Source: Phaseolus vulgaris
Taxonomy: Eukaryota; Streptophyta; Magnoliopsida; Fabales; Fabaceae
Direction of reading: 5' to 3'
NCBI RefSeq assembly: GCF_000499845.2
Contig: NC_023754.2
Location: forward strand, 6,712,477-6,776,476
Length of the DNA stretch: 64,000 nucleotides
Of this stretch, positions 33,521 to 54,933 are shown piece by piece. The translations under genes and the position numbers were made by a program. Numbering within the stretch: the first letter of the stretch is position 1; each line of letters starts with the position of its first letter. The notes below the pieces were generated by a model. That model did not search any database and was not told where the DNA came from. It saw only the letters and a list, made by a program, of their open reading frames with translations.

Positions 33521-33757
33521 AAGCACGCGATATGTCTTTTCTTGCCTTAAATCATGTACAAATGACAAGGTCTTTCTTCAAAACTTTTGAAAATATCACA
33601 CATGCAATCTGAAAACACCTTATACTTCGAAAACTCTTCTTTTATTGGGTGGCCTCATTAAAAACCCTCCTTAGGGAAAAAAGAGTGCCCCCTTGAAACT
33701 GTTTTAACAGAGACATTGTAATGTAACATTTTGTGTTTGTCTTTACTTACAAAGCTC

Positions 33758-36700
33758 TCAACTATAGTACAACTTCAGGTGTGTGGCGTTCCAGGTACGA
33801 GGGATCGCCCCTCCTTCCAGCGTCTCTAAGCGGTAGGCTCCGTTCCCGAGTGCCTCGGTTATTCTGAACGGTCCAGTCCACTTGGGTGAGAGTTTATTCT
33901 CCATCTCGTACTGGTGGGCCTTCCTCATCACCAGATCGCCTTCTCTAAACTGCCTTGGCATCACCTTTGAGTTGTACCTTCGCTCGACCCTTCTCTTCAC
34001 CGCCTCAGCCTTCAGCCTTGCCTCCTCCCTGACTTCATCCAGTAGATCCAGGTTCAGCCTTCTTTCTTCATTCGAGCCTTCCTCTATGAAGTTCTGGAAT
34101 CTCGGCGAGCTTTCCTGGATCTCCACCGGAATCATGGCATCACACCCATAGACCAAGCTAAACGGGGTCTCATGGGTTCCTGACTGCTCGGTGGTGTGGT
34201 ACGCCCAGACTATACGGGGCACTTCTTCAGCCCAACTTCCCTTGGCTTTCTCAAGCCTTCTCTTCAAACCTCTCAATAACACCCGATTAGCTGATTCCAC
34301 CTGGCCATTCGTCTGAGGGTGCTCGACGGATGCAAACACTTGTTGAATTCCAACCCCTTCGCAAAGCTTCTTCAACAGGTGGCTTGCAAACTGCGTCCCA
34401 TTATCTGACACCAGGCGCTTAGGCACTCCAAACCGGCACACAATGTTCTTCCATACAAAACCTTCGATCTTGTGTGCGGTGATCTGGGCCACTGGTTCTG
34501 CTTCGATCCACTTGGTGAAATACTCAATCGCCACCACCAAGTACTTCATCTGCCTGATCGCCAGCGGGAAAGGTCCCAGGATGTCGATTCCCCAAGTATG
34601 AAACGGCCAAGGGCTATAGATCGACTTCAACTCCTCGGGAGGTGCCTTATGCCAATCGGCGTGCTGCTGGCATTGTTTGCAGCACTGGGCATACTTCTTG
34701 CAATCTTCTCTCATGGATGGCCAATAGTAGCCTGCACGGAGAGTCCTCGCGGCCAGAGCTCGACCCCCGACGTGACTTCCACATATTCCTTCGTGGAGCT
34801 CTGCCATAATTCTCGTGCACTTCCTAGCTTCTGTTGGATCCAGCGGGAGGAGGCCATCCGCCAAGCACCGCTTGTACTGTGTTATCCAAGTGTCTGGCTC
34901 ATGGCTGGCGCAGACCTGCATGACGTTCACCTTCTCTCCTCGGCATGCTCTGATTCTCGGCGATCTCAGAGTTTCCTGCGTCAAAGACTTATGGCTTCTC
35001 GCTGCTTTCTCCGTCGACTTGCTTATCTGAAGGACCAGGTGATCTGCTACAAACGCCCTCGGCGTCTTCAGAGTTTCTTGAATCACCGTCCTCTGCCTAC
35101 CCCCCTTGCCTGAGCTGGCGAGCTTAGCAAGCAAGTCAGCTCGGGCATTCTGTTCTCGGGGCACATGTACCACTTCAAAAGAGGCAAAGGAACTCTTCAA
35201 TTCCTGCACATACGCCAAGTAAGCCGCCATTTGTGGATCTTTAGCCTGGAACTCGCCTGTTACTTGCCCTGTGACTAGCAGCGAGTCACTCTTAGCCATC
35301 AGCACCCTAGCTCCCATCTCCTTAGCCAGCAGAATCCCGGCGATCAACGCCTCGTACTCTGCTTGATTGTTGCTGGCTTTGAAGGCAAATCTCAACGATT
35401 GTTCGATCAGCACGCCGTTGGGTCCTTCCAATATGACTCCAGCACCGCTACCCTGCTGGTTCGACGATCCATCCACCGAGAGTACCCAACGGAAGTCATC
35501 TCCTTCAACCCGCGTCGCCTCTGATGAGAGCTCGACTACAAAATCTGCAAAGGTTTGCTCCTTGATCGGGCCTCGGGGCTCATACTTAATGTCAAATTCT
35601 GACAACTCCACTGCCCATTTTACCATTCTTCCCGCAACGTCAGGTTTCTTCAAGACCTTCTGGATGGGCAGGTCAGTCATCACCAGTATTGTGAAGCTGT
35701 GGAAGTAGTGGCGCAACCTCCTCGCCGAAAACACCACAGCCAGCGCAGCCTTCTCAAGGGCCTGATATCTCGTTTCTGGGCCCTGCAGCACCTTGCTCAC
35801 AAAATAAATAGGCTTCTGAGCCTGATCTTGATCCTGGGCGAGCACCGCACTCCCCGCCCTCTCAGTCATAGCGAAGTACAACCTGAGAGGGATTCCCGCC
35901 AGCGGTTTGCACAGAACCGGCGGACTCGCCAGATACTCCTTCAGCTTGACGAAAGCTTCCTCGCACTCTTTCGTCCAAGCGAACTTGTTATTGCGCTGCA
36001 GACACTGAAAATAGGGATGCCCCTTTTCTCCGCTAGCTGACACGAAGCGAGATAGGGCTGCCATCCGACCTGTCAGCTGCTGAACCTTTTTCACCGTAGC
36101 CGGGCTTCTCATCGCCAAGATGGCGGCACACTTGTCCGGGTTAGCTTCTATTCCTCTTTCAGTCAAGAGAAAACCCAAAAATTTTCCAGCCTCCACGCCG
36201 AAAATGCATTTCTCCGGGTTGAGCTTCAACTTGAACTTGGCGATCGTCGTGAACAATTCTTCCAAGTCTGCAACGTGCTTGCTTTTCTCCTGTGAGGTCA
36301 CGACCATGTCATTGACGTAAGCTTGCACATTCCTTCCCAGCATTGGTGCAAGTACTCGATCCATCAACCTCTGGTACGTGGCCCCCGCGTTCTTCAGCCC
36401 AAAGGGCATCACCTTATAGCAGTAGCACGACCTCTCCGTCATGAAGGCTGTTTTTTCTTCATCCATGGGATGCATCTTGATCTGATTATAGCCCGAGAAG
36501 GCGTCCAGGAAACTCAGTAGCTTGCACCCTGCAGCACTATCAACCAGGGCATCAATGCTTGGTAAAGGATATGAATCCTTTGGGCAAGCTTTATTTAGAT
36601 CGGTGAAATCGACGCACATGCGCCATTTCCCGTTGCTCTTCTTCACCAGTACGACATTCGCCAACCATTCAGGGTACTGGACTTCCCTGATGTGGCCTGC

Positions 36701-37291
36701 GGCGAGGAGTTTCTGGGTTTCATCCCTGATCGCCTGCCTCCTTTCCTCGTTGAATTTCCTTCTCCTTTGTCGCACTGGTCTCACCATGTTGTCCATTGCC
36801 AGATGATGGCACAGAAAGTCGGGATCAATCCCGGGCATGTCCGAGGCGGACCATGCAAACGCGTCCAGATGCCGCTCAATCACCTTGGCGATCTGGTCTT
36901 GGAGATCGACTTCCAGAGATCTTCCCAGCTTGAAGATTTTCCCTCCGATCTCCTTTTCGAGCCACTGCTCGATAGGTTTGGGCCTGGATTCTCTGGCGAT
37001 CACCGCCTTGGCGATTTCCAGTTCTCTCGCTTCCTCGGGGCGATTCCGCGCCTCTTCCTCCTCCAGGCCAGCATTCCTCTCCCCCAGCTCTGCGTCTATC
37101 ATCTCTACGTCCCTTCCGGCGGCCTCCTCTGTTACCGGCGGTCTGGGCTTCACACCGGGAGGCGGGGTGGTTGTAACATATCTCACTGATCTTTTATTCT
37201 TCAGGCTATTCTCATAGCACCTTTTCGCTTCTTTCTGATCAGACTTTATCGTGATCACCACCCCTTCCATCGATGGCAACTTCACCTTCAT
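33758..37291 (-). pseudogene. Tat-type Gypsy pol (RT, dual RNase H, integrase) with mutated RT active site
   Basis: 1177 codons open. RT occupies about residues 190-370 (LVKKSNGKWRMCVDFTDLNK, FSGYNQI, MPFGLKNAGATYQ). The active site at residues 325-328 is YVND instead of YVDD; the Asn codon AAT is at 36313-36311. The first RNase H is about 455-590, and a second, archaeal-type RNase H (LSVDGSS, NNQAEYEALIAG, VPREQNARADLLAKLA) about 605-735, a Tat hallmark. The integrase has an H..H..C..C finger (CGSHVGG...CKQCQQH), then the catalytic WGIDILG, SDNGTQFA, and E in TNGQVESAN. It ends IPRTWNATHLKLYYS. The reading frame begins only after a stop that separates it from gag, so the first codons are really the end of the protease region. 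Loss of the first RT aspartate should abolish polymerisation. Confidence 0.95.
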
Positions 37292-37336
37292 GTGCCGTGT
37301 CGACGGAATGGCACCTATCCTGTTAAGAGTGGGCCT

Positions 37337-39157
37337 TCACAATAGGATGTTATACGCTGAGGGGGCATTTACGATGAGGTACTTGATTTTCTCTGTCCTC
37401 GACCCAGCCTCATCTGTAAACGTGGTTCTCAGCTCAATGTACCCCCTGACCTCCACCTGGTCGCCAGCGAACCCATACAAGCATCCTCCATAGGGCCTTA
37501 GCTGGTCAAGGGGCAATTCCAGCTGCGTGAAAGTCGGCCAGAACATCACGTCAGTCGAGCTTCCTTGGTCCACCAGAACTCTGTGGACCTTCCTTCCCGC
37601 CGTGATCAACGAAATAACAATGGGATCGTTGTCATGAGGCACAACGTCCCGAAGATCCTGCTTGGTGAACGTAATGTCCACTTCCGGCGAGTGATCTTCA
37701 AACATGTCCACTGCCATTACCGATCGCACGTACTTTTTCCTCTGCGATGCGGTGCATCCACCACCTGAGAAACCCCCTGCAATGGTGTGGATCTCCTCAT
37801 GGATAGGCATCTCGTGTTGCTGGGCTTCTCCACCTGCTGGCTGGGAACTCGACGCTCCTCCGGTCCTTCTGTCCAGCAGATAGTCGTTTAGGAACCCGCT
37901 CTTAACCAGATCGTCGAGCTGGTATCCTAAAGACAAACACGAGTCCAGGTTGTGGCCAAAGCACTGGTGGAACTCGCACCAGGCGTCCGGTTTTGACCCC
38001 AGCACCTTGTCGCCCACCTTCTCGGGCGCCTTCAATCTAGCAGATATGTTAGGGATAGCGATCAGGTCCGCTAGTCCCATGACGAATTTGTGCTTAGGCG
38101 GGCGATTGTACTCTCGGCGTGCTGGTTGTTGGCGTGCTGGTGGTTGGCGCGCTTGGCTTCTTCCCTTATTTCTCCTATCGTAAGGATAGTGAGTCCTTTG
38201 GTCTTTTCTGGCCGCCGCCGCCATTTCCAGCACCCTCTGTGGCTGGATCCTGGTGTGGGCGCGCGGCCTGGCGGGAGCCACGCTGCCTCTCTTCTCGGCG
38301 ACTTCACTCTCGTCGGCGATGTGGGCCACCGCAAGTCGCCTGACTTCAGCAAACGTCGCTGGATGAGCCCTGATCAAGGCCTCGCAGAATGGCCCTGGCT
38401 GCACGCCCTTCTTGAAGGCATAAACCAACATTTCTTCATCCTTGGCTGGCGATCTGACCATCTGCGCTCCGAAGCGATTGAGGTAGTCTCTGAGGGACTC
38501 CCCATGGTACTGCCTTATGTCAAACAGGTCATAGGACACCCTGGGTGGTGCCTTGTTCACAATGTACTGCTCGACAAAGATTTTCGAGAATTGCTGAAAA
38601 TTGGTTATGTGGCCATTAGGCAGGCTCACAAACCACTCCATCGCCGTTCCTTGGAGCGTACTCACGAACATCTTGCAGTAGACGGCGTCCGACCCTCCCG
38701 ACAGCATCATCTGTGTGTGGAACGTGGTCAAATGAGCTTCTGGATCCTCCACGCCGGTAAAAACAGCTTTAACCGGGACCACGCTCGTGGGAATTGGCGT
38801 GTCGGTAATCGCCTGAATAAAAGGCATTGGGAACACACGAGGTGGCGTCGACGGTGCCACCTCTTCAGCAGAAGAACGTCCCTGCTGCTCCTGAAGAGCT
38901 CGACGCAGCTCCTCAGCTACCTTGCTGAGCTCCTCATTCCTGGCGCGGGAGGCGACCAGGTCCTCATGTATCCTTGCCTGCTCCACGCGCGAGGCTTCCA
39001 CAGTCGCCTGCAACGAGCGCATCATCTCTGCCATTTGCGCCATGGTCATGGCGGCGTCGCCTTCAGCAGCGACGGGAGCCACGGGACTGGAACGATTGCT
39101 TCTCATCTTTCTCATTAACTTCAGCGAACCACAGGAATACAGCAAACAACACTTCAA
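37337..39157 (-). CDS. Tat-type Gypsy gag-protease
   Basis: 606 codons open; a likely start is the Met at about 39115 (MRKMRSNRSS) rather than the first codon. The Retrotrans_gag domain lies at about 125-270 (AVFTGVEDPEAHLTTFHTQM, TAMEWFVSLP, FVEQY, ESLRDYLNRF). A basic linker follows (YDRRNKGRSQARQPPARQQ), then CEFHQCFGHNLDSC as the small zinc motif, and the protease with VLVDQGSSTDVMFWPTF. The frame ends at TGA (37337-37339) inside YNILL*RPTLN, where the family has a glycine. The next bases continue the conserved motif into pol, so this is a nonsense change in what was one gag-protease-pol frame. Confidence 0.93.
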   Translation of the reverse strand: MKCCLLYSCGSLKLMRKMRSNRSSPVAPVAAEGDAAMTMAQMAEMMRSLQATVEASRVEQARIHEDLVASRARNEELSKVAEELRRALQEQQGRSSAEEVAPSTPPRVFPMPFIQAITDTPIPTSVVPVKAVFTGVEDPEAHLTTFHTQMMLSGGSDAVYCKMFVSTLQGTAMEWFVSLPNGHITNFQQFSKIFVEQYIVNKAPPRVSYDLFDIRQYHGESLRDYLNRFGAQMVRSPAKDEEMLVYAFKKGVQPGPFCEALIRAHPATFAEVRRLAVAHIADESEVAEKRGSVAPARPRAHTRIQPQRVLEMAAAARKDQRTHYPYDRRNKGRSQARQPPARQQPARREYNRPPKHKFVMGLADLIAIPNISARLKAPEKVGDKVLGSKPDAWCEFHQCFGHNLDSCLSLGYQLDDLVKSGFLNDYLLDRRTGGASSSQPAGGEAQQHEMPIHEEIHTIAGGFSGGGCTASQRKKYVRSVMAVDMFEDHSPEVDITFTKQDLRDVVPHDNDPIVISLITAGRKVHRVLVDQGSSTDVMFWPTFTQLELPLDQLRPYGGCLYGFAGDQVEVRGYIELRTTFTDEAGSRTEKIKYLIVNAPSAYNILL

Positions 39158-39449
39158 CCACGATCGAAACAGCGATCAATCGGAGAAAACTCAAGAAACT
39201 GCGCAAGAAACCAAGAACACCGCAAACCTTCGCAGAAAACCACAAAAGAACTCGAACCTCCACCAGACAGATTGCGCGCAAGCAACCAAAGACCTCACTC
39301 CACCGATTAAAAGCCAAACAATCGGTACAAAACACAAACTCACCGAACGAAACTCAAAGAAGCTGCAAACGACGGTTGCACCAGCACACAACCGCGCAGA
39401 AAACCTCGAAAACTTCCACGAACTCACGCTGTGGATGGGAGCACGTTTT

Positions 39450-39474
39450 ACACGGCCCCACGGTGGGCGCCTGA
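39450..39474 (-). promoter_or_regulatory. Tat element primer-binding site
   Basis: Directly after the 5' LTR (minus reading) comes GGCGCCCACCGTGGGGCC. A TGGCGCC-type primer site is usual for Tat/Athila Gypsy elements, unlike the TGGTATCAGAGC site of the Copia elements in the window. Confidence 0.75.
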
Positions 39475-40269
39475 TGATCCTGCTTGTTGACCGGAGCGCT
39501 GGAGAGTGCCTCGTCAAAGGATCGACGTGCGCACCGCTTATCACCTTCGTTCCTCCTCTGGATCTACTTCAAGAACCTGCAAAGAAACGACACGGCACCG
39601 CTGCGGCCGATCGCACTCCGACGCTCAAGTCAGTGACGGTATCACCAAATACTAAGAACTAGAACCGTGCAAAAACTCTCTCTCACAACAGCTCTGTCGC
39701 TCGCAAGCGTAAAGTGTATGAACTGAACATGCGTACCTCAGAAAGTTCGTTAAGAGCTCTTATATACCTGGTGATTTTCTCTCTCCTGGCAGTTACAGAC
39801 TTGGACACGTGGCTCGTATCCAACTGTACACGTGCCATCATCCGGAGGCTTACTGACTTGGCGCTGCTTCTACTCTCATTTTGGCTAAGTTACCTATGCA
39901 TGGTACTGCCCAGTGCATAGCTAACTTTAGGAGTGCGATCTCTACTGAAACTGGCGAGTTAGGGCCTTCATACACCTTCCCTGTGGTCTCGCCGGCCGCC
40001 TTCATAATCTGCTTCTCCTTCATCTTCGGCGATGTGCTTGTTCTGGCGATCTCCGACTGCTTGGTCGCCTAAGTCTGCATCTGGCGACTCCATCCTCAAC
40101 CTGGCGATCGCCTATTCTGGTAAACTGGAAGTCGAAACACGCCAACTTAACAATCGACGACTACACGTGCCTCCCGACTTCCTTCCTAACTGCCAACCTG
40201 GCGCCTTGTCAACACGCCTACACTGTAGCAGGGTGCCACGTCATCATACCCGACCACCAGGGCGGTACA
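39475..40269 (-). repeat. Tat-type Gypsy 5' LTR
   Basis: 795 bp, TGATCCTGCT ... GGGCGGTACA on plus, followed by the TSD copy ATAAT. Confidence 0.97.
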
Positions 40270-41300
40270 ATAATTATGTCTATTTTCAAAAAACATCCGA
40301 TGGGTCATTTATATACTTGTTGTTATATGTTGATGACATGTTGATTATCGCAAGAGATAAATCTTTAGTTAACAAGTTAAAGGCCCAACTTAGTAGTGAA
40401 TTTGATATGAAGGACTTAGGTCATGGCTAGAAAATTTTAGGAATGGAGATCAACAGAGATCGTCAAGTTGGAAAACTTTTTCTATCACAAAAGAAGTATG
40501 TTCTTAAGATGCTTGACAAATTTGGAATGCGAGATTGCAAAGTTGTTAATACTCCAATTGCTGCCCACTTCAAGTTGTCATCAGATCAGTGTCCATAATC
40601 AGACAAGGACAAAAGGCGCATGTCACATGTCCCGTATTCAAATGCAATTGGAAGTCTCATGTATGCTATGGTATGTACTAGGCCTGATTTAGTTTATGCT
40701 GTTAGCATTGTTAGCAGGTTCAGGCATAATCCAGGCAAGACACACTGGGAAGCCGTTAAATGGATACTTCGTTATCTGAAAGGTTCTCCAGATCTTGGTT
40801 TGGTATTTGATCAACATAGAGCCGATCCCGGAGGAGTAGTTGGCTATGTTGATGCTAACTATGATGGTGATTTAGATTGGAGAAGGTCACTTTCAACCTA
40901 TATTTTTACCCTATGTGGGTCTGCTATCAGCTGGTATTCTTCACTTCAAGCCATTGCGGCTTTGTCCACCACTGAAGTAGAATATATCGTTGCTACAGAA
41001 GGTATGAAAGAGGCTATATGGCTTCGAGGCTTGGTAAGTGAACATGGTCTTCAACAAGATGTTCTTGTTATATTTTGTGATAGTCAGAGTGCTGTCCACT
41101 TAACCAGGAACAACAAGTATCACCCAAGAACCAAGCACATTGAAATTAAGCACCATTTTATCCGAGACATTGTTGATACGGGAGATATAATTGTTGAAAA
41201 AATTCATACGACCGAAAATCCTGTAGACATGTTGACCAAGCCACTTCCACTGGCTAAGTTCGATCATTGCCTGAACTTAGCTGGTATTATCCATACTTAA
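40270..41300 (+). pseudogene. Copia pol, 3' part (RT active site, RNase H)
   Basis: Continues the interrupted Copia frame: NYVYFQKTSDGSFIYLLLYV with the intact YVDD, then a TAG (about 40427) in LGHG*KILGMEI. A TAA (about 40596) follows SSDQCP. The rest is open: SLMYAMVCTRPDL, the RNase H motifs VGYVDANYDGD, STTEVEYIVATEG, IFCDSQSAVHL, RTKHIEIKHHFIRD, and the C-terminal NPVDMLTKPLP. Both stops fit C-to-T type changes of Arg/Gln codons. The purine-rich GTGGAGATT precedes the 3' LTR. Confidence 0.93.
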
Positions 41301-41355
41301 TCAAGGCTTCAAGGCGAGAGAGTGTTCCAGTCAAAGGCAAGTCAACGTGGAGATT

Positions 41356-41888
41356 TGTGGATTATGACTCACCTTTTCGTTTTCTTGACATAATTGGGAG
41401 GTTACTTGCCACAATTAATTGTAATCAAATAGAAGTTTCTTACTACAATTAATTGTCATCAAAGGGAGGTTACTTACCATTAATTGATTTTATTATTGTT
41501 GTCTCTTAGAACCACTATATATAGTGGCTTCCTTCAAGCAATGTAACACAACAAACAACAACACACACTTGCTTCCTCTCTTTTTTCCTATACTCTCTAT
41601 TTCTTCTCTTGAGTGTAAGTGTTTAACCCATATAGAGAGAATTTGTTTTGAGGTTATTTATCTATTAGCCTGAGAGGAATTCATTGTACTCCCAATACCA
41701 TTATAGTGGAAGTTTTGACTCTCTCGCCGATGTTTTTTACCTCTATTCAAAGGGGTTTTTCACCTAAAAATTTCTGGTATCATTCTCATTTTTCCTTGTT
41801 ACTTTAAATTCTCATTTTTCCTTGTTACTTTAATTTCTCATAATCTTTTGGTTAAAATTATCACGCTTCCGCACACGATATCCCTACA
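41356..41888 (+). repeat. Copia 3' LTR
   Basis: 533 bp, TGTGGATTATGACTCACC ... ATATCCCTACA. Contains a tandem duplication of a CTCATTTTTCCTTGTTAC segment near 41787-41838 that is absent from the 5' LTR. Confidence 0.93.
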
Positions 41889-42168: not shown

Positions 42169-42519
42169 TCGAGACAAGACAGCTTCTTCCTACACCTCCA
42201 TGACTTCTTCTCCTACCCCCATACTAAAAGTACATTTACTAATATACCCCTCAGTAAAAATATTAAAAAAATTAAAATAATAGTTTAATATACCTTTAAC
42301 CTACCCAATCTTCACTTTCACTTTCACTTTTGTGCGTTTTCTCTCTGTTCCTTCCAGCGGCGCCGCTCCACACCTCCATTCGAAGATTTTTTCTCTTCAT
42401 CTCTCTTCATCTCTCTAAACTCCACATTCTCTAGCACTCACACATCCAAAGTCTCCTCTTCACAGGTTAGTAAGTTGAATTTTCCAAATTTTTCATTGCT
42501 TTTGAAACCTGCTGCTGTT

Positions 42520-42915
42520 GTGTAATCCGTTTGTAGTGTAATCCGGTACGCTGTGCATTTTTTCATAATAGGCACCGGATTATGTAATCCGGTACAGTTG
42601 TGAATGTAAAGTAATACCGGATTACTTAATCCGGTATAGGTTATTTTAGTAATCCAGTACTGTGTGCATTTTTTCATAATAGGCACCGAATTATGTAATA
42701 ATCCGGTATAGTTGTGAATGTAAAGTAATATCGGATTACTTAATCCGGTTTAGTTTATTTTAGTAATTCTGAATTAGGTAATCCGATTTAGGTATTTTAG
42801 TAATTCAGGATTACGTAATCCGGTTTAGGTTTACATTGTGTGTGTTTCGGATTATGTAATCCGGTTTAGGTTTACATTGTGTGTGTTTTGGATTATGTAA
42901 TCCGATAGTGTTCTT
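42520..42915. repeat. Left subterminal repeat array of the Mutator-like element
   Basis: Many copies of the near-palindrome GGATTA(T/C)GTAATCCGG and GGATTACTTAATCCGG. A unit of about 112 bp (GTGCATTTTTTCATAATAGG ... AGTAATCCAGTA) is duplicated at about 42553-42776. A 41-bp unit (GATTACGTAATCCGG...GTGTTTCG) is repeated at 42809-42849, 42850-42890 and in part after 42891. These could be transposase-binding sites. Confidence 0.9.
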
Positions 42916-43067
42916 ACAAAGTTTGCATTTTTGTGTTTTTGTTATATATTTAGTTTACAACCCACTTGTGAAAAACTTTTTTTAAATTTTATATTATTAC
43001 ACAAATTCATGATTATATTATTTATTATTTGTAAATAATTGAAATTTAAATTGTGTTGTGGATAGAT

Positions 43068-44989
43068 ATGGCTAAAACTAGAGGTGGTGGATCTCAGGAT
43101 CATGATCGCAGAAGACTGACGGCATCTATCCGTAGAAGAGACCGAGGTGGTGTCGAGGAAAGGATTGATGATGATGTTCATATTGATAATGACAATGAAC
43201 AAGAATTACAGAATGATGACCAAGTAGACCACAGAGAAGGGTTTCCTGGAGGACCTTCTGATATGTCTTTACTGGTAAATTTTGCTGACCATGTTGCTGT
43301 TAAGCTTTGGGAGGGTGAGGTAAGAACGAAAAAACCTTCAATTAAATTATCTTTATTAATTATTGTTTAAATTTATTTAATTATATTTAATATATACAAC
43401 ATTTATATTAGGATCGGGGAAAACTTAAATTGGTATCTCACGGTAGGAAATTACGTAAATTTGGGATTCCTCATGCTAATATTGAGCTACTTGTACAAAA
43501 TTCTGGATTGTTTAGTTTGTGCAATATAAGTTATGAAGTGGGTGACAAGGGATTGATTTCAGCCTTTGTCGAAAGGTGGCATCGGGAGACAAACTCCTTC
43601 CACCTTCCCGTAGGTGAGATGACCATCGCACTTGATGATGTGTCATCTCTTTTACACCTCCCCATTTTGGTTCAATTCCCAACATATGTGCCCTTAGAGT
43701 ACAACGGAGCTGCAACAATTTTAGCTGAGTTACTAAGGGTGGATGAGACTCGGGGGAAGGCTGAGATGAGGCAGTGTCGAGGCGTCCACGTACGATTGAG
43801 TTGGCTTCGAGATATATATGAGGAATGTTGCGCTCAAGAGGCTTGGGAGTGTGCTGCCAGGGCTTACTTGTTGCATCTGCTTGGATGCACTATTTTTGCA
43901 GATAAAAGTGCCACCTCTGTATCTATATCGTACTTATTGTTATTCAGCAATCTACATATGTGTCATGGATATACATGGGGAGCAGCAACACTTACATATC
44001 TATATGAGCAGTTGGGGGATGCATCTTATTTTAACACGAAGCAGTTGGCCAGTTATGCGACACTGATTCAGGTATGAAACCATACAAATAATTAACAATC
44101 ACATGTTACATTCCATAATGTTTTGTATTAAATATTTTATAGTTAATATTATTGAATTACGTAGGCATGGATTTATGAGCACTTTTCGGGCATGGGAAGA
44201 AGGGATATTAATCCCTCATATGACGATGTACACCCGCGGGCAGCACGGTATATTGTTGCCCATCAGATTTGCGCAGTTGGTGATGTGCGGGCGCAGTTGG
44301 ATGGGGTCACACACGATGACATCATCTGGACTCCGTATGAGGACCATAGATTGAGTAGACCATTTGAGACCATCTATTTATTCTCGGGTCACTTGCGATT
44401 GGGCAGCTTATCACATAGACATATGCCCGAGCATGTTTTGCGCCAATTTGGGTACGAGCAGAGCATTCCATCATCACCGATGGCGGCTGAGGCTCCTAGT
44501 GCACATGTCATTGATCAAAGGTGGTTGCAGTTTGATCACCACGTGGTGACAGGTTTGAGAGTTGCTTCTAGTCCATCTGCATGTGTTCCTGAGTACATGT
44601 CTTGGTTTAGGACGGTATCACACCCATACATTCGCAGAGGTGAACTTGGAGATCGACCCAGTGTTGTACCACGTCATCGCCTTCGTAGTCCAAATGCTGA
44701 GCAGGCAGGTCATTCATCTCAAGATGAGCGTGCACATGCGATAAGTTTTTTTTTTTATTGTTATGTGATTAAACAATATATTTAACAAGTTTAATTTATT
44801 TTGAAATTGGTGAAGGGTATATTTAGGCGCATTGTTAGTATCCTCCAGCGCATGATAGATTGTCGTCAGGTCACTGCAGGCACTGAAGCATATAAGAGTA
44901 CGGAGGCAGCGCTGCAGTTAGCCCGGAGTGTGTCAGATGACGGGGCAGTCCACACGAGACGATCACGTAATGTTCGTGGACGTCGTTGA
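43068..44989 (+). CDS. Plant mobile domain (PMD / MAIN-like) protein inside the Mutator-like element
   Basis: Exon 1 is 43068-43319 (MAKTRGGGSQDHDRRR ... KLWEGE, GAG/GTAAGA). Exon 2 is 43412-44071 (DRGKLKLVSHGRKLRKFG ... YATLIQ, CAG/GTATGA). Exon 3 runs 44165 to about 44740 (AWIYEHFSGMGRRDINP ...). A last exon is about 44816-44989 (GIFRRIVSILQRMIDCR ... RRSRNVRGRR, TGA). I could not fix the last intron's donor. The core has SAFVERWHRETNSFHLPVGE and the IALDDVSSLLHLPI helix, typical of the plant mobile domain found in MAIN-like nuclear proteins and in many transposons. Function in the element is unknown. It is open and probably expressible if the last intron splices. Confidence 0.85.
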
Positions 44990-45292
44990 TATTTTTTTAT
45001 TACATGATTGTAATGATAGTAACTTTGTATGTGTACAATATGGTTTAATTAATTTATGTTATAGTGTTTGTTATTTTATTTTTTATCTGACATAAATGCG
45101 AATAAATTATGAATCGAAATTGAAGTAATAAATTATGAATCAGAACTTAAGTAATAAATTATGCATAAGAAACCGACATAATAAATTATGTTTACATCAA
45201 TCGTCTCCAAGGTTCACATATGTCGGGCTAATACTGATTAATTGGGTAAAAGATTGCATCCGAGCAATGTAATATGATGACCATAACCTTGC

Positions 45293-45392
45293 CTATGGGT
45301 AACAATGTGTACACCATAAAATGTCAGCGGTAGGTATGGGACAATCATCAAGCAATTTTACCTGCACCACAAATGGAAATTAGCAAACAAAG

Positions 45393-45431
<39 letters not shown>

Positions 45432-48118
45432 GTGTTGAGTAATATCCTTACCTGCACAAAGTGTGAATCATTCACATGACCAATACATAGTAATCGGTGT
45501 AGACTAGCATCGGTAGGGGGTGCAGTACGCAATGGAAAAATAGTAATATTTTGTTTCAATGACAAACAAACTAAGATAATATTGTATCTGCTTGCTATTA
45601 AGTATCCCATATCCGGTATTGTCATCCATTTTTCAACACTAGCCTGCAAAATGCAATAATGAAATTAGATTGCATACAAGTTCAATTAATCAATGCACAT
45701 GAGTCTTATGAATATGCACTTACCACTGACAACTCATCTACTAGTAAGGACCTCTTGATATCTTCTACTCGTTGATGACCACCTAACAATGTTGCGTATT
45801 CTTCACGCCACTGAGATATTTCTTTGAATAAATCCATTCTGATGAGTGGCCATGACTCTTCACCCATCCCCAACAATGAGGCAATAGCACGAATCCCACA
45901 ATGTCCATCAGCTTTAACATCTATTACATCCAAAATATAAGAGTGACATTTCAGATGAAATTGATCAAGCATTGGAATTGCATTGGTGTTGGTCATCACC
46001 TTAACCTTTCCCTTACAAGTATTCAAAGATGATGAACTATCATTTACAAAATGGATGCGATCTACATGCTCAAAATATGAAGGGGTGCGTTTTGTAGACC
46101 TCTGAAATTTATTTCCTTGACTCTTTTGAGATCCTTTTGTCTTAACTACATTAAGTGATGCACATAATGTTGTCATGTCCGGATAGGCAATTTCACGCAA
46201 CTTGTTTTTGATTGTCACTTTGCCACAAATATCAACCTCGTCGAACCGGGATAGAATCACATCCCGTTCTTGTTGAATTGACAACCGAGATGATGAATCA
46301 CATTCAGATAAACCTGAAAAACTTAGTCTCGTCCACATAACATGAACTTCATTAAGAGTATTGACACCCATAGCATACCTGGCTAACTTACAAGCACATG
46401 GTAATCCGTGAGTCTGTCTGAGTATACATCCACATCGTTCACTATCAAACCCCACATCATTGACCCGATCAAACTCTTCAGCAATGAGAATTAAAGCATG
46501 TTTAGATATAGAGCCAACCAACATTTTATACAATTGCACATTGAATGTGTGTCCTATCACATGTAGACTCATTTGAAATGATGCCTTAATCTCGTTATGT
46601 TGAAGTATAATAACATGCTTGATAGCATCCCAACACGAGCACAAGTCTCCCATGCTATTTTCTAATATTCGTTTCAAAGACCAATGAGCTGATTCAACCC
46701 TGTATAAGTATAAAACATAATAAAACAATTACACATTATACACGTTCTAAACAAAGTAAAAGTATTCATATACCTGTTTGATGTTGTATTTCCCAAATGC
46801 ATTAACAAATTTGTCCAACACTTGACAAACTTTTCTTTGTGCGGAATAATCCAAGTGTTCTTCACATATTCAAAAAGTAATGGCCACGGTGAACAAATAG
46901 TTTCAAAATTTTTCACAAACTCATCAAATTTACCAATCTCTGTACAGTCAATGATAGTCTTCCATGAATCCATCACAACTTCCCAAGCCTCGACTGAATC
47001 TACCAACATTTTACACTTTGCTTTAACATTCTTATTGATGTGAAACCGACAAAGAAGATTTCTTGTTTTAAGAAACACAATATTGATGGCATTCATCAAA
47101 GCAAGATCTCTATCACAAACAATGACTTCAGGCCCCACATGCGATGTCAAAAGTGACCCTCTAAATTTTTGTAATGCCCATATGAAGTTCTTTTCTTTCT
47201 CGCTAGATAAGAATGCAAAACTAGCAGAAAAGGACAAACCTGTACAAGTTACACCAACAATCTCAAGCAAAGGCAGTCGATATTTGTTTGTTTTGTAAGT
47301 TGTATCCATTAAGAATACAATGTTAAATGCATTCAAGAGTTTCACAGCATTAGGATGAGTCCAAAAAATATCACTAACAATATTTGAAGACTCATGACAC
47401 GTACTCCAGTGAAGATAGTTGTCACGGTCTAACAACATCATTAACTGTTGTAATTCAGTTCTTGGTCCTCTAACTGATCTCTTGTACGAGTATCTTGCAT
47501 TGTATATTTGCTTTATTGTTGTCATATTATCCTCATTATTCTCCTTCAAAGTACGTAGAATGTTACCTGGCTTAACCATGCTTTTAGTCATATCAACAAG
47601 CATTGAATGTTCATTCGTTTTTAATCTTCCTGCATATGGATGACCAACTAAGGTATCATACAAATCATGATTATGAGTACCACATATTACCTTAAGTACC
47701 CAACCTTGACCCTTTCCAACAGGTTTACCTCGCAATTTAAAGGGACATTCACATTTTCGAGTACCAGTTACACTAACCTCCAAACCATCTTTATACTTTC
47801 TATAACTACCCCCCCTTTCACAGCCTAACAAGACATATGTCTTTCTCCCTTGCTTACCATTTGCTATGTCAGACCTAATAATGACAATAGCAAAACCAAG
47901 TCCATAACCAACCCTACGGACCCATTCAAGTAAGTCTTATCGCGAAGGAAACACCTACACAAAGTTATTCTAACAATATTACAAAATCACTTCTTCAAAT
48001 TATAATGCAATAAACATAAATGAAATGAAATTTTATTCACCTCATCTGTTGTAAAATGGATACCATAGTCCCCTTCAAACAATCCATGTTGATGCACAAA
48101 ATTCATTAATTCTTCCAT
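45293..48118 (-). pseudogene. MULE transposase fused to OTU cysteine protease; one premature stop
   Basis: Five exons with GT-AG borders: 48118-48041, 47954-46774, 46699-45724, 45643-45452, 45361-45293. Joined they give 831 residues with one in-frame TAA (47939-47937, about codon 32, in VFPSR*DLLEWVRR). The order is a FAR1/WRKY-GCM1-type DNA-binding region (CERGGSYRKYKDG ... CECPFKLRG ... GTHNHDL), then MULE transposase with D in FLMDTTYKTN, D in VIVCDRDLALM and E in NRVESAHWSLKR. A SWIM-like CGCILRQTHGLPCACKLA is followed by an OTU domain. The OTU Asp/Cys site is ADGHCGIRAIASLLGMG and its late His is in IGHVNDSHFVQV. The transposase would cut and paste the element; the OTU part resembles deubiquitinating proteases. 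The fusion is seen directly; activity is inferred. Confidence 0.92.
45394..45429. repeat. (AT)n microsatellite in the last intron of the transposase-OTU gene
   Basis: About 18 uninterrupted AT dinucleotides, between exons 4 and 5. Confidence 0.95.
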
Positions 48119-48119
48119 A

Positions 48120-48660
48120 CTTACACCTTCATTCATAAAACATAAATTTTAATTTTATTATAATTTCCATAAATTCACATATGCAAAACAAAAATAGCAT
48201 AAGATTTTGTAATTGACAACTTGACTTCCGGATTGTATAATCCATAAGTCAAATTTTAACAGCATAATGAATTCCGGATTACGTAATCCATAAGTCATTT
48301 CAGGTGACTTCCGGATTGTGTAATCCATAAGTCAAAATTTTCACAGCAAAATGACTACCAGATTGTATAATTCTTAAGTCATGTTTGATGTTCCAAATTG
48401 TGTAATGCGTAATTGAAATTCATATAGCAAAATGAGTACCGGACTACGTAATACGCAAGACATATTGAAAGTTCTAAAATCACTTCCGGATTGTGTAATC
48501 CATAGTTCATTTGGTACCGGATTACACAATCCGGAAGTATGAATTTGGCAGGTTCCGGATCCGGTATGCTCAAAAGTTATCTAATCCGAAACGCTTTACT
48601 TAAGCATTGGATTATGTGATCCGTGGATCCACCGGATTAACTAATGCGGAAATATTTATT
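48120..48660. repeat. Right subterminal repeat array of the Mutator-like element
   Basis: Repeated TTCCGGATTGT(A/G)TAATCCATAAGTCA units and CCGGATTACACAATCCGG palindromes between 48225 and 48655. They are of the same core type as the left array but arranged with different spacers. They lie upstream of the transposase start codon (48118) and so also cover its promoter. Confidence 0.85.
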
Positions 48661-48717
48661 TAAGGCAGAAGAATGAGAATGAGAATGTACCTCACCAACG
48701 GTGCCAATGCCAACACC

Positions 48718-48783
48718 ACCTACCACCGCTGCTACCTACCACCGTGCACCACCTACCACCGCTGCTACCTATCACCGTGCACC
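48718..48783. repeat. 33-bp tandem duplication, CCACC-rich
   Basis: Two copies (48718-48750 and 48751-48783) of ACCTACCACCGCTGCTACCT..., differing at one base, inside a CCACC-rich stretch (48700-48880) just inside the right terminal repeat. Long open frames occur on both strands here but only because of the repeat composition. Confidence 0.9.
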
Positions 48784-49002
48784 ACCTCAACCACCTTCTC
48801 AAGCACCACCTCCAACACCACTTCAAGGACCACTTCAAGGACCACCACCACTCAAGCTCCAGATGCACCCCACCACACGAAGTAACTTCCTTTCTCATTT
48901 TTATCTTTTTACTGAAGAATAATTTTAGTATTTTTAAATTTTATGGAGGTGCCCGAAATGGAGGTAATCATGGAGGTGCAGGAAGAAGCTGTCTCGAGAC
49001 AA

Positions 49003-50478: not shown

Positions 50479-51637
50479 TGTTAGAATAGATGACTTTAAA
50501 CTAGACGGGGGGGGGGGGGTGAATTGTTTAAAGAGGATTTTCGCAAACTTTTCAAACAAAAATGAAATTATCTCAAGAAACAATTGATTCAGAAATTCAG
50601 TTTGCCAAAACAGCAAGAAAAAGCTACAGTACCAGAAAAAAAATCAGTTGTTTCGCATAAACAATCGGTTGTTTATACCAGCAAACAACAAAATAAAAGT
50701 GAATTTAAAGAGTTAGAGATAGAGAGATTGTACACAATTGTTTATACTGGTTCACTCCAAACCCAGAGCTACATCCAATCTTCTCAGAAACCCTGAGGAA
50801 ATCCACTAAGCAATCACACCTTGATCACTTACACAACAACCAAGAGAATTACCTTGAACACCTCAAGAAACACACTCTCCTTGGCCAACACACCAACACT
50901 AAGATTGCTGATCTTGATCCCCTCAAGAACACACAACCAATCTCAGCAAACACAAAAACGAAACTTGTTTTACAGAGTACAAGGATTACACTTGTTACAG
51001 AAGATAATCTGAAATCAATACAAGCAGAATCCTATTCCATACACTTTGATCAATCACAAACTCTTAGCAATCTCAGCTCTTTGAAAAAACTCAAAAACTC
51101 TTAGCAAAAACTTGTCAAAGATTAATTGTCAAATATGTTTTTCTGAATTTATTCAAAGATGTAGTTTGTTATCAAATCTTAACAAACTCTTAAATTGCAT
51201 TTAAAGATTGGTCAAAGCATTTAATGACTGGAGCGTAAGCAGTTAAAACATTTAAAACTCAGTCAAAGATAATACAGTTTTTCTGTTATGGTCCCAAAAC
51301 AATCAATCGGTTGTTTCCTCGAATCAATCGGTTGTTTTGGTACTTAACAGTTCAACCATTTTAAAAACAGTTTTCAATCTTGTTCTCAAAACACCTAAGT
51401 ATAAACAATCGATTGTTTCGACAAAACAATCGGTTGTTTTAACTTAGTTTGAAAACATTTTACTTTCACAAAGATTGAGAATGCCTATGCTTTAGATTTA
51501 ATCAAAGAGTGGATTACAACATCCAAACTACTCTAGAACTAAGCTAAACCAGCACAGCAACATCAAGCACAACAGAGGCTTCAACATCCTCCAAAGGATT
51601 TGGATTTTTCAAAACTTGAACACCACTAGGTTCAACA
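50479..51637 (-). repeat. Sirevirus-like 3' LTR
   Basis: Contains at least five AACAATCGGTTGTTT-like near-palindromes (about 50640, 50662, 51300, 51322, 51405-51440). It is 46 bp longer than its partner, owing to two segments lying between such motifs. Confidence 0.95.
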
Positions 51638-51655
51638 ATCTCCCCCTATTTGATG
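51638..51655 (-). promoter_or_regulatory. Polypurine tract
   Basis: On minus, AAATAGGGGGAGAT ends at the first base of the 3' LTR; it is the plus-strand primer site of reverse transcription. Confidence 0.85.
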
Positions 51656-51853
51656 AAGACAAATCCCTGATGCTTGTGTTGTCAAAATGTAAATTTTATT
51701 TGAATATATTACAACTAATGTCATAGTCCTAATTCTAATTTGTCTTGTTGCCTCCACTTGATCCAATAATATTTTGGTTCAGTGATGAAGTACGACTTCC
51801 ATCATTCGGTGCCTGAAATTAATTAAAATATGTTTAGGGTTAATTTTCAAATT

Positions 51854-52350
51854 TTAAAAAATAAATGAAAAGAATATTATATATCCAAGGAGTGTGCATG
51901 AAAGCCCATACCCTCCTGGCAATGCATATTCAACAGATGATTGCTCACTTATTGGGATGGAAGGTTTAAGGCCGTATTCACTGGTTGCACCAAACTCACT
52001 AAGCACTTCTACTGACACATCACCCTCCAGTACTCTCACAACCTAATTAATTCATTAATTCATCCATCATAACTTAAGTTAAACAAAGCTTATTCAAATT
52101 ATATAAACAACAACAATTAAAAAATAGAGAAAGAAAAAATAACATGTGATAAATTAATGATTTAAAATAGGAGAAATGTGAAATGAATGTATAGAGATAT
52201 TATTAATTACCTGACTCATTTTGGACACCTCTTTGTTGAGTGCCTTATGCTAAATGCAACACAAGTCACCATACAAGGCATTAGTTGCTTGTCATAAATC
52301 TCCTTTAAACGTGGATCCACAAGCCCTTCAAAACTTCCATCCTCCATTGC
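51854..52350 (-). pseudogene. PERK-type receptor kinase C-terminal fragment, two exons
   Basis: Exon a (52350-52211) reads AMEDGSFEGLVDPRLKEIYD, ... VTCVAFSIRHSTKRCPKMSQ and ends at a GT donor. Exon b starts at 52042 after AG with VVRVLEGDVSVEVLSEFG and runs to about 51854. This is the end of the kinase domain and the tail of proline-rich extensin-like receptor kinases (family pattern LVDPRL, RHSA.RRPRMSQVVRALEGD). A one-base loss in an A-run before MSQ shifts the frame. The intron is kept, so it came from genomic DNA, not cDNA. No promoter or N-terminal part is present. Confidence 0.85.
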
Positions 52351-52359
52351 CTTTGTAAT

Positions 52360-52865
52360 ATGCAGACTTGTAATCTTAAAATTGTTTCTTAAATAATAGT
52401 TAAACATTCAATGTATTCCTAATTTAAGTAATCATGAAAAAAAATTGTTTAAGGCATGGATAGCATACACCAAAAACAACCTAGGAAACAGTTCTTACTC
52501 CAAAATTCACTTAAAACAATGACGTGGCATGGATAGTAAAAAGCATGTAACCATAAACCAAAAATATTTAGATTCACCTCAAACAAAGATGAACAAAAAT
52601 AATTGGGCGCTGCTTCACCCTTATTCATCTCCATATACAACACATCAATGTGAAAACTAATTGTATGATACTTATAAAGGTTAATCTTTTGGCAAAGAGA
52701 TGCAAAGAGGCCATACTTGGGTTGTGGAAGAAATCTTGCAAGAGGTAACAGTTTCCTTAGATCAATGTAAAACTTGTCACCAGCTGACTAAGAGGTAGCA
52801 ACAATCCCTTCCATCATTTTAATCGAGAAGCATTGCAAGTTCACAAAGAAACCACCATAACATCA
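52360..52865. other. Element interior without recognised gene
   Basis: Noncoding sequence between the PERK-like fragment and an LTR-like repeat. It may include intron of the captured kinase gene; nothing else is recognised. Confidence 0.35.
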
Positions 52866-53864
52866 TGATGAGAATCAAAAAGATGTTATCAATAGAAGAA
52901 ATGGACAAGGGCCAAAGCATTTAAAGTTCTTCTTATTAGTCTTTGCAAAAGATGAGGCCCAAGCCCAAAGCCCAAGCCCAAGAAGGACCAAGCCCAAGAA
53001 GCCCAAGTCCAAACCATGAGGGGCAAGGCCAAGCATTAAATAAAAGAGCATCATTTGAAGGACTCTTGTAGGAGGTGTGGATATTAAATAAATAGGTGTG
53101 AATGTATTAGAGAGAGTCACATTGTCCATGTGACTTAGTAGGGGGTGTAGGTGTAGTTTTTAGGAGGTGTCATAGTAGAAAAAGGTCACACCTCCCATGT
53201 GACTTGTTTTTGGTGGGAATTTCAAATGAGTTTCATTTGAATTTTCCCACCTATTTTTCAGCACCTCTTAGGCTATAAATAAGGTGCTTGCCTTTGTAAA
53301 ATTCAGATTTGGAATTTAGAAGTAGAGAGACTATACTCAAATTTAGAGAGAAATTGTGAGTCTTGTTGTCTTCTTCTTCCTTTGCCTTATCTTGTGTGCC
53401 AATGGTGAGCTTCAAGTGGCGGCAACCTTGCACTTATCTTGGAACAAGGCTCCAAGTGGCGTGACTGAATTTCCAAAGTCTCAAATCCAGCAAGCTTCAT
53501 TCCATAAGTGTTCTTTCTTCCATTCCTTTCAATCCCATTCGGTAGTTTCTTATTGCTTAGTGTTTTCTTTCATTTCCACCGTTTAAATTTGTGTTTTCCA
53601 GCTTTGTTTTCAGTTTCTGTTCGGTACAGTAGCTTAATATTTCAATTCTATTCAGCTTTCAATTCTTGTTCTTCATTCCTTGTTGTTTGATTCCATTTGA
53701 CAATATATGGACTTCCATATGAGCTTTGGTTTGGTGCAAAGTCTTGGTGAGTTCTTGAATTAGAACATTGATCCAATTCTAAGTAAAGTGCCATTTCATG
53801 ACCAACTCAAGTTGCTCCTAAGAATGTCAAAGAATCATGTATTCTTGTTATTGCATTCACATCA
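52866..53864 (+). mobile_element. LTR-like repeat, same family as 12112-13006, opposite orientation
   Basis: Runs from TGATGAGAATC to TTGCATTCACATCA. It shares the AAGCCCAAGCCCAAG-rich part, the CTATAAATAAGGTGCTTG TATA-like segment (about 53271), the TTGTGAGTCTTGTTG leader and the ATTCACATCATGTGGTA end with the other copy. The bases after its end (TGTGGTACCA) are a decayed version of the primer site seen at the other copy. No TSD was confirmed. Confidence 0.65.
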
Positions 53865-53912
53865 TGTGGTACCACATCACTACTTCGTTCCAAAATAAAA
53901 GCAACCAACAAG

Positions 53913-54299
53913 TTAAAAAAGAAAAAGAAAGAAACCCACTGATTTATTCATGGGGCCGAATATTTCATCATTTTTCCCAATATGAGTCATGTTTTTGAGA
54001 TAGATAGGAACAATGAAAAAGGGAATAAGCTTCGTTCCAATCGTTAGTAATGGAAGAAAAACAACCTCACATTTGGAAGGTGGCCCATCGTCGCGAAAAC
54101 CGCGCATCCTCCACCACCATGACCAAATCCACCTCTACCGCGACTGCCATCGTCGCAACCACCCTTGAAATCGCCACCGTTGCGGCCACCTCTGAAACCT
54201 CCACCGCACCCACCTCCTCTAGGGGGTCTCATTGTTTAGTGATTAGAGAATGCAACCACAGAGAGTTGCCAAGACAACGTTTCGAGGTTTTAGGGTTTT
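53913..54299 (-). pseudogene. GAR1: Captured GAR1 (H/ACA snoRNP subunit 1) fragment with telo-box promoter
   Basis: From the ATG at 54232 the frame reads MRPPRGGGCGGGFRGGRNGG, a GAR-rich N-terminus. After a frame change near 54105 it continues [13 protein letters not shown], then [20 protein letters not shown] and EIFGPMNKS. This is the conserved core of GAR1 (family IPFFNAPIYL.NKT.IGKVDEIFGPIN), the H/ACA small nucleolar RNP protein of pseudouridylation. About 8 residues are missing between EVV and IPFF. Upstream at 54299-54288 is AAAACCCTAAAA, a telo-box usual in promoters of ribosome-biogenesis genes, so a promoter and 5' exon seem to have been captured together. The frameshift makes it non-coding now. 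Confidence 0.85.
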
Positions 54300-54874
54300 G
54301 GGGACAACGCTGCCGAAAATAGGTTTTTGAAGAGAGATGAATACTTTAATGTTGGGGCCACTATTGGGCTTTCTTGGGACTAAAATGGTGAGTGGGCGGA
54401 GAGTTGCAGAGAGAAGATGATGGATGTGGCAGAGAGAAAATGGTGAGTGAGACAATGATTTGCGAAGAGAAGATGGCGAGTGTGCATAGAGAAGGCGGAA
54501 AGCGGCGGGGAGAAGACAGTGAGTACCAGAGAGAAAATGGTGAGTGGGACAGTGAGTTGCTTAGAGAAAATGGTGGATGTGGCGGAGAGAAGAAGAAGAG
54601 CGGCAGGGAGAAGACGATTTGTGGCAAAGAGAAGAAGAAAAGGTTTCAAAGAGAAAGCGAATTTGAAAGGTTTTAGAGAATAAATTTTGGGAAATATTTC
54701 AAAATTACGTGGAGGGAACGAAACGCGGGAGAACACTATTATGGCGGTTCTAAATGTCATATTTTGAAGGATAATTATGGCGGTTATAAAGTTGTCGTAT
54801 TGTACAGATAATAGTGGCGGTTTTTAATAACCGCCATATTATAACCGCCACTACATACACGTTTTTTTGTAGTG
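54300..54874 (-). mobile_element. CACTA-type transposon end adjoining the GAR1 fragment
   Basis: Read on minus, the segment starts at 54874 with CACTACAAAAAAAC, a typical plant CACTA terminus. Subterminal AACCGCCA/TGGCGGTT motifs in both orientations follow (54741-54855). Between these and the GAR1 leader is an imperfect GAGAGAAGATGG repeat (54392-54640). The opposite CACTA terminus was not found; it may have been lost or displaced by the LTR-like repeat. Confidence 0.65.
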
Positions 54875-54933
54875 CCAGATATAACAGCAAGAAAACAATC
54901 AATTCTTCCGATAACCAATCAGTTGTTTTTCCT

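What the first reader, a model, noticed from the sequence alone, without database searches (positions are those of the whole stretch)
42169..49002. Mutator-like element with two cargo-type genes: a plant mobile domain protein and a transposase-OTU protease fusion
A perfect 9-bp target duplication (TCGAGACAA) and about 26-bp terminal repeats delimit a 6.8-kb unit holding a PMD gene and a MULE transposase whose C-terminus is an OTU cysteine protease with its Asp-Cys and His motifs. MULEs with ULP1-type SUMO proteases are known in plants. An OTU domain fused to the transposase, paired convergently with a PMD gene, suggests a transposon that edits ubiquitin marks on its own transposase or on host silencing factors. 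I do not know of a standard description of this pairing. The boundaries and domains are seen; the function is inference.
Basis: partly seen in the sequence, partly recalled or inferred. Interest (0 to 1): 0.88.

Follow-up and report, generated by a model that had tools for sequence, protein, structure and literature searches.

The report
Bean transposon with OTU-protease transposase
This is one damaged copy of a repeated jumping gene of common bean whose transposase ends in a ubiquitin-protease-like domain and which also carries a plant mobile domain gene: a variant of a known kind whose extra parts have untested roles.

Summary
Window 42169-49002 is a Mutator-like element of Phaseolus vulgaris: perfect 9-bp target duplication, terminal inverted repeats, and two convergent genes, one PMD and one MULE transposase with a C-terminal OTU fold. 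Pfam misses the OTU in the window sequence, but a predicted structure of a relative matches OTU proteases in 50 of 50 listed rows. It is a family: all 20 other copies fetched (best 20 of 39 further matches) carry at least fragments of both genes, convergently, and 11 of 18 with both ends have perfect 9-bp duplications. This copy is damaged (two in-frame stops in the transposase, abnormal PMD splice donor); one copy, L038, keeps the transposase-OTU frame open. Novelty is limited: Dupeyron 2019 lists PMD, often antisense, for seven plant MULE groups and an OTU gene in a cnidarian MULE; Ginger1 transposases can end in OTU. What I did not find described is a FAR1-like transposase + OTU + convergent PMD, with arrays of the palindrome CCGGATTAnnTAATCCGG near both ends and none in the middle in all 19 elements examined. 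OTU and PMD function is inference; recent copies show no detectable purifying selection on the OTU (dN/dS 0.94, 0.61-1.51).

The parts
42169..42177 (.). target site duplication, left (TCGAGACAA)
   Evidence: identical to 48994-49002
48994..49002 (.). target site duplication, right
42178..42210 (+). left terminal inverted repeat (weaker similarity to about 91 nt)
   Evidence: arms 42177-42210 / 48961-48994, 88% complementary; blastn 71% over 98 columns, E=2e-7
48961..48993 (-). right terminal inverted repeat
42575..42905 (.). left subterminal array, 7 units of CCGGATTAnnTAATCCGG at <=3 mismatches
   Evidence: 3-8 units on this side in all 19 elements
48228..48649 (.). right subterminal array, 7 units of the same palindrome at <=3 mismatches
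   Evidence: 3-8 units on this side in all 19 elements
43068..44989 (+). PMD gene: exons 43068-43319, 43412-44071, 44165-44740, 44816-44989 (last exon by comparison with P0223)
43535..44611 (+). Plant mobile domain PF10536 (split by the intron 44072-44164)
   Evidence: E=1e-36 and 2e-12
44741..44746 (+). abnormal splice donor of the last PMD intron (AT where GT is expected)
   Evidence: GT in 12 of 15 alignable other copies, AT in L047, AA and TT in the poorly aligned L032 and L046
45293..48118 (-). transposase gene: exons 48118-48041, 47954-46774, 46699-45724, 45643-45452, 45361-45293; four GT-AG introns
47028..47318 (-). MULE transposase domain PF10551 (candidate DDE residues at codons 243, 307, 422)
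   Evidence: the DDE assignment rests on recalled motifs
45296..45981 (-). OTU cysteine-protease-like domain, codons 660-831 (introns 45723-45644 and 45451-45362); Asp 45909-45907, Cys 45900-45898, His 45463-45461
47937..47939 (-). in-frame stop TAA, codon 32
45293..45295 (-). in-frame stop TAG, codon 832; the frame beyond resembles the C-terminal tail of relatives

Best explanation
It is a damaged copy of a repeated, TIR-bearing Mutator-like family in common bean. The family has two convergent genes: a FAR1-like DDE transposase ending in an OTU cysteine-protease-like domain, and a separate PMD gene. Shown: anatomy, copies, target duplications, predicted fold. Inferred: the transposase binds the ends (perhaps the subterminal palindrome arrays) and moves the element; the fused OTU removes ubiquitin at the transpososome, most simply from the transposase itself or from local chromatin or repair proteins; the PMD protein blunts host silencing by imitating or titrating host MAIN/MAIL proteins. 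I put the identity at about 0.95 and this functional scheme at about 0.3; the confidence below is for the identity with the scheme as a working hypothesis.
For: TSD and TIR. PMD and MULE domains. OTU fold: 49 of 50 VIA-align rows (two of them under general deubiquitinase titles, taken as OTU from recall) and 50 of 50 Foldseek rows; the other row is the ISCth4 transposase, on the transposase part. Asp/Cys/His kept in 101 of 121 rows of relatives covering all three. Transposase-core and OTU distances correlate, Mantel r 0.90, 0 of 2000 permutations as high, 14 sequences, with similar mean divergence 0.38 and 0.37. Fragments or more of both genes in 20 of 20 fetched copies; 11 of 18 copies with both ends have perfect 9-bp TSDs. 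Transposase core dN/dS 0.42, 0.30-0.66. L038: 864 of 864 codons open with all six candidate catalytic residues. Host PMD proteins MAIN/MAIL1 act in TE silencing, and Ikeda 2017 speculates that MULE-captured PMD serves anti-silencing (PMC5418596, passages).
Against: OTU dN/dS among recent copies is 0.94 (0.61-1.51) and PMD domain 0.73 (0.54-1.08): no significant constraint in this set. The OTU Cys is Tyr in 25 of 217 non-gap rows of relatives. 5 of 20 copies lack OTU sequence inside the element. Only 1 of 19 aligned elements keeps the whole transposase-OTU frame, and its PMD has a stop. No enzymatic, expression or binding data.
Confidence: 0.85

Rival explanations
1. The OTU and PMD are passengers: acquired long ago, they persist by copying with the element and have no present role in transposition or silencing.
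For: OTU and PMD dN/dS among recent bean copies is not distinguishable from 1; Cys to Tyr in 25 of 217 rows; copies lacking the OTU exist.
Against: Among 14 legume sequences the OTU is no more diverged than the transposase core (0.37 against 0.38) and the triad is kept in 101 of 121 rows. Recent copies mostly record decay after insertion, which pushes dN/dS towards 1 for any gene.
Confidence: 0.25
2. The OTU acts as a processing protease on the element's own proteins and not as a deubiquitinase.
For: The domain is fused to the transposase C-terminus. No substrate is known.
Against: The fold matches enzymes acting on ubiquitin and ISG15; no ubiquitin-like part appears in the Pfam scans of the element's frames.
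Confidence: 0.08
3. The pairing is local: a PMD host gene fragment was captured by this copy alone, or two insertions lie side by side.
For: MULEs are known to capture host sequence (Ikeda 2017 passages).
Against: 20 of 20 other copies carry PMD and transposase sequence in the same convergent layout; 6 of 9 further copies held only as short loci (L022-L030) have PMD sequence beside the left end.
Confidence: 0.02
4. The palindrome arrays are binding sites of the PMD protein or of the transposase, making this a VANC-like sequence-specific anti-silencing system.
For: 3-8 units near each end and 0 in the middle in all 19 elements, 0 outside the element in 57,184 window bases; VANC targets are likewise short motifs in tandem arrays in non-coding parts of VANDAL elements (PMC5735166, abstract and passages).
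Against: No binding data. Such arrays may serve the transposase alone or be inert. 9 units also lie in 72,803 bases of copy flanks, not followed up.
Confidence: 0.3

Closest known systems
Plant MULE groups with PMD (Dupeyron 2019, PMC6446971, Table 1 groups 42, 45-50)
   Same: MULE transposase plus PMD, often antisense; 9-bp TSDs where given; TIRs of tens of bp or more where given
   Different: No OTU is listed for these groups; FAR1 is listed for other rows (groups 1, 35, 36 and a Phytophthora subgroup of 50)
MuDR-6_HM (cnidarian MULE, Dupeyron 2019 group 14)
   Same: MULE with an 'Ovarian Tumour Gene'
   Different: Animal host; no TIR and no PMD listed
Ginger1 DNA transposons (Bao 2010, PMC2836005, passages)
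   Same: Transposase with a C-terminal OTU or Ulp1 domain
   Different: Gypsy-integrase-like transposase, not MULE; animal hosts; no PMD in the passages read
Kaonashi/VANDAL and melon, rice, grape ULP1-MULEs (PMC2528002, PMC13317346, passages)
   Same: MULE carrying a cysteine protease of the ubiquitin-like-modifier kind
   Different: ULP1 domain, in Kaonashi in reverse orientation to the transposase; here an OTU fused to the transposase
VANC anti-silencing in VANDAL21 (Hosaka 2017, PMC5735166, abstract and passages)
   Same: Element with arrays of a short motif in non-coding parts
   Different: VANC21 motif is YAGTATTAY arrayed in one orientation; here an 18-bp palindrome near both ends; binder unknown
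Legume proteins named FAR1-RELATED SEQUENCE, PKS-NRPS hybrid synthetase or OTU domain-containing protein
   Same: Same transposase-OTU family; 43-66% identical to the window over the aligned OTU-end piece in all but three of the 120 listed rows (those three, P. vulgaris, 90%)
   Different: Names are automatic and several look wrong

Membership tests
Mutator-like elements (MULE) | MULE transposase domain | tested here: met
   PF10551 E=5.6e-25
Mutator-like elements (MULE) | 8-10 bp, usually 9-bp target site duplication | tested here: met
   9 of 9 in the window; of 18 copies with both ends 11 perfect 9 bp, 3 perfect 8 bp read off the output, 2 at 8 of 9, 1 at 7 of 9, 1 at 3 of 9
Mutator-like elements (MULE) | terminal inverted repeats (in most groups) | tested here: met
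FAR1/Jittery-type MULE | FAR1/AFT N-terminal DNA-binding domain | tested here: inconclusive
   AFT 24.6 bits over cut-off 21.6; FAR1 15.1 under cut-off 28.1; at E<=10 FAR1 in 10 and AFT in 12 of 28 relatives; no tree with Jittery was made
OTU protease superfamily | OTU fold | tested here: met
   predicted model of relative P0026: 50 of 50 listed Foldseek rows OTU; the window protein itself was not modelled
OTU protease superfamily | Asp, Cys and His catalytic motifs | tested here: met
   codons 684, 687, 806 in the window; 101 of 121 rows of relatives
OTU protease superfamily | match to the curated Pfam OTU or C65 model | tested here: not met
   none for the window piece at E<=10; weak in relatives. 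Profile and fold comparisons find the relation
OTU protease superfamily | deubiquitinase activity | not testable with these tools
   needs an enzyme assay
Plant mobile domain family | PF10536 match above cut-off | tested here: met
   127.3 and 47.4 bits, cut-off 34.9
Kaonashi/ULP1-MULE | ULP1 protease domain | tested here: not met
   the protease-like domain is OTU; no ULP1 match in Pfam scans of the element's frames
Pack-MULE | no transposase, captured host fragments | tested here: not met
   transposase present
SWIM zinc finger | Pfam SWIM match | tested here: inconclusive
   no SWIM row for the window protein nor among the 16 families listed for 28 relatives; a Cys-rich CGC...PCAC motif is present

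The most novel reading that the evidence does not exclude
A two-protein counter-silencing transposon: the PMD protein or the FAR1-like transposase recognises dense palindrome arrays near both ends, and the transposase-fused OTU strips ubiquitin from the transposase or from chromatin held there, so that family members escape host silencing.
Probability: 0.18. Interest if true: 0.75.

Novelty: new variant of a known kind. Interest (0 to 1): 0.45.

Why it matters
Ubiquitin- and SUMO-directed proteases recur in unrelated transposons (ULP1 in MULEs and CACTA, OTU or Ulp1 in Ginger1) with no tested role in the passages I read. A repeated bean family with an OTU fused to the transposase, a PMD gene, one copy with an open transposase-OTU frame, and conserved subterminal palindrome arrays offers a concrete system for testing whether such proteases help transposition or evade silencing. 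It also points to doubtful automatic names in legume annotation: 10 of the 120 rows listed are called 'PKS-NRPS hybrid synthetase'.

Tried and rejected
Chance TSD/TIR: rejected, family copies carry their own different duplications. PMD captured by this copy alone: rejected by 20 of 20 copies. PMD fused to the transposase as in grasses: not seen, 0 of 342 fetched proteins match both at E<=1e-5, but these were only the best 120 rows of each of three searches (338, 135 and 718 proteins found). Relatives in viral contigs and genome contigs, which hold no plant genomes: none. Linkage by scaffold length: P0029 (transposase-OTU) and P0246 (PMD) share a contig length of 388,983 in Vigna radiata, P0219 and P0257 one of 918,354 in Sesbania; suggestive only, positions unknown. 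Purifying selection on the OTU among recent copies: not found. Rows dropped before dN/dS: L032, L035, L046, L049 (poorly aligned or too short), L048 and L050 (second end not found); 15 sequences kept, of which only pairs with dS above 0.02 entered (44 pairs for the OTU). The many stops of L032, L046 and L049 probably come from misalignment. Methylation-type decay of the palindrome: not shown; CpG positions changed in 134 of 872 cells, other C/G positions in 208 of 872. The first full-length model is poor outside the OTU and part of the core (mean pLDDT 49).

Literature. None listed a paper whose title or abstract start describes an OTU fused to a plant MULE transposase; the library holds only CC0, CC BY and CC BY-SA papers, and Babu 2006 (NAR), cited by Ikeda for the first PMD-MULE, is not held, so an earlier description cannot be excluded. 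Divergent subfamilies in the bean genome could not be tested for pairing because the genome search did not complete.
Full report
OBSERVATION. The element lies at 42178-48993, flanked by TCGAGACAA on both sides. Its ends form inverted repeats (34 nt, 88%; 71% over 98 columns, E=2e-7). A PMD gene reads rightward (PF10536, E=1e-36 and 2e-12) and a transposase gene leftward (PF10551, E=5.6e-25): convergent, with 303 bases between their stops on my gene models. The transposase model has five exons and four GT-AG introns.

THE OTU DOMAIN. Single-sequence models are not enough: the window piece has no Pfam OTU or C65 match at E<=10, and of the 14 sequences of alignment A1, the window piece included, 7 match C65 and 3 match OTU, only weakly. 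A profile of A1 against PDB sequences gave 7 hits at E<=10, all OTU proteins, best 0.011. Two predicted models support the fold strongly. The full-length relative P0124 (10-residue mean pLDDT 50-87 over the OTU) gave OTU proteases in 49 of 50 VIA-align rows and the ISCth4 transposase in the other. The relative P0026 (10-residue mean pLDDT mostly 74-95 over the OTU, dipping to 58-64 near residue 300) gave OTU proteases in 50 of 50 listed Foldseek rows of 97 found, best DUBA/OTUD5 at 8.4e-5. These are models of relatives, not of the window protein. Asp, Cys and His are present in the window and together in 101 of 121 rows of relatives that cover all three; Cys is Tyr in 25 of 217 non-gap rows, so probably inactive forms exist.

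SOURCE AND FAMILY. The best protein relatives are from Phaseolus vulgaris. The genome search answered once: the window is G000:C6:6712477-6776476 in a 537.7-Mb genome, and the left 300 bases have 40 scored matches, the window's own included, out of 204 candidates. I fetched the best 20 of the 39 others at about 10 kb. All 20 carry PMD and transposase matches on opposite strands; PMD covers 470 or more of 496 residues in 17, and only 82 and 35 residues in L032 and L049; transposase coverage runs from 112 to 831 of 831 residues. Coverage was counted over the whole fetched stretch, and in L034 part of it lies outside the element. Because copies were chosen by the end next to the PMD, the transposase at the far side is the more independent part of this result. 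OTU sequence inside the element is near complete in 11 of 20, partial in 4 and absent in 5. Of 18 copies with both ends, 11 have a perfect 9-bp duplication, 3 a perfect 8-bp one read off the output (L031, L034, L039), 2 match 8 of 9, 1 matches 7 of 9, and 1 matches 3 of 9, the last with an uncertain right end. Of 9 further copies held only as short loci (L022-L030), 6 have PMD sequence beside the left end and L025, L028 and L030 have none.

STATE OF THIS COPY. The window transposase has in-frame stops at codons 32 and 832; after the second the frame runs on into a tail like that of relatives. The last PMD intron starts with AT, against GT in 12 of 15 alignable copies. Of 19 aligned elements (18 copies and the window) one, L038, has the transposase-OTU frame open over 864 of 864 codons with all six candidate catalytic residues; its PMD has one stop. 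So the family, not this copy, is the thing of interest.

EVOLUTION. Core and OTU distances among 14 sequences (13 relatives and the window, thinned from 36 relatives with both parts) correlate at r=0.90, 0 of 2000 permutations as high, with mean distances 0.38 and 0.37: consistent with an old fusion and comparable long-term divergence. Among 15 recent bean sequences dN/dS is 0.42 (0.30-0.66) for the core, 0.51 (0.30-0.92) for the N-terminal part, 0.74 (0.46-1.29) for the linker, 0.94 (0.61-1.51) for the OTU and 0.73 (0.54-1.08) for the PMD domain. Only the N-terminal part and the core are clearly constrained in this set. Pairwise comparisons share branches, so the intervals are rough.

PALINDROME ARRAYS. 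CCGGATTAnnTAATCCGG at <=3 mismatches occurs 14 times in the window, 7 near each end of the element, and 0 times in the other 57,184 bases. In all 19 elements there are 3-8 units on each side and none in the middle. 9 units occur in 72,803 bases of copy flanks, unexplained. Over 218 units, CpG positions changed in 134 of 872 cells (130 transitions), other C/G positions in 208 of 872 (94 transitions), A/T positions in 74 of 1744 (72 transitions). Changes at CpG are nearly all transitions, but CpG positions are not the most changed and transitions prevail at A/T positions too, so methylation-linked decay is not shown; on checking I took that support out of the novel reading and lowered its odds from 0.20 to 0.18. 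VANC proteins bind short motifs arrayed in non-coding parts of their elements (PMC5735166, abstract and passages), the closest working model.

WHAT IS KNOWN. Ikeda 2017 (PMC5418596, passages) reports PMD-C captured twice by MULEs, as fusions in grasses and Amborella, and speculates on an anti-silencing use. Dupeyron 2019 (PMC6446971, passages with Table 1, and section 6 part 1) lists PMD for seven groups with flowering-plant hosts (42, 45-50), in several sometimes or often antisense, and an OTU gene in a cnidarian MULE. Bao 2010 (PMC2836005, passages) describes Ginger1 transposases with C-terminal OTU or Ulp1 and suggests a role of the ubiquitin pathway in transposition. ULP1-MULEs are described in PMC2528002 and PMC13317346 (passages). 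UniRef already names two relatives 'OTU domain-containing' (P0169, P0170). So each part is known; the combination in a FAR1-like legume MULE, and these palindrome arrays, are what I did not find described in the ten searches named under Tried and rejected.

VERDICT. A well-supported new variant of a known kind; the functions of the OTU and the PMD remain open.

Noticed in passing
42575-42905 and 48228-48649, and loci L031-L047 and L049: Arrays of the palindrome CCGGATTAnnTAATCCGG near both ends of every element examined (19 of 19), none in the middle; 9 further units in copy flanks are unexplained.
   Followed up: partly
25186-41738: A copia-type retrotransposon (193-nt repeats at 25186 and 41546, 95% alike, probably in its LTRs) appears to be interrupted by a gypsy-type element whose repeats at 28416 and 39605 are 100% identical over 300 nt.
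   Followed up: partly
29642-32314: Inside that gypsy-type element two long open frames run opposite to gag-pol (33758-39175, minus strand): one matches Transposase_28 PF04195, the other matches coiled-coil models below their cut-offs.
   Followed up: no
50640-59744: Repeats about 8.1 kb apart, 96-97% alike, around an open frame 55294-56169 (minus) matching Transposase_32 PF20167.
   Followed up: no
relatives P0034 and P0035 of Glycine max and others: The OTU Cys is Tyr in 25 of 217 rows, suggesting forms with an inactive OTU.
   Followed up: no
relatives P0139, P0151, P0162, P0167, P0177, P0178, P0179, P0188, P0191, P0192: Transposase-OTU proteins of legumes are named 'PKS-NRPS hybrid synthetase' in public records, probably a misannotation.
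   Followed up: no
15418-15975: Open frame with a partial CRT-like transporter match PF08627, perhaps the first exon of a host gene.
   Followed up: no
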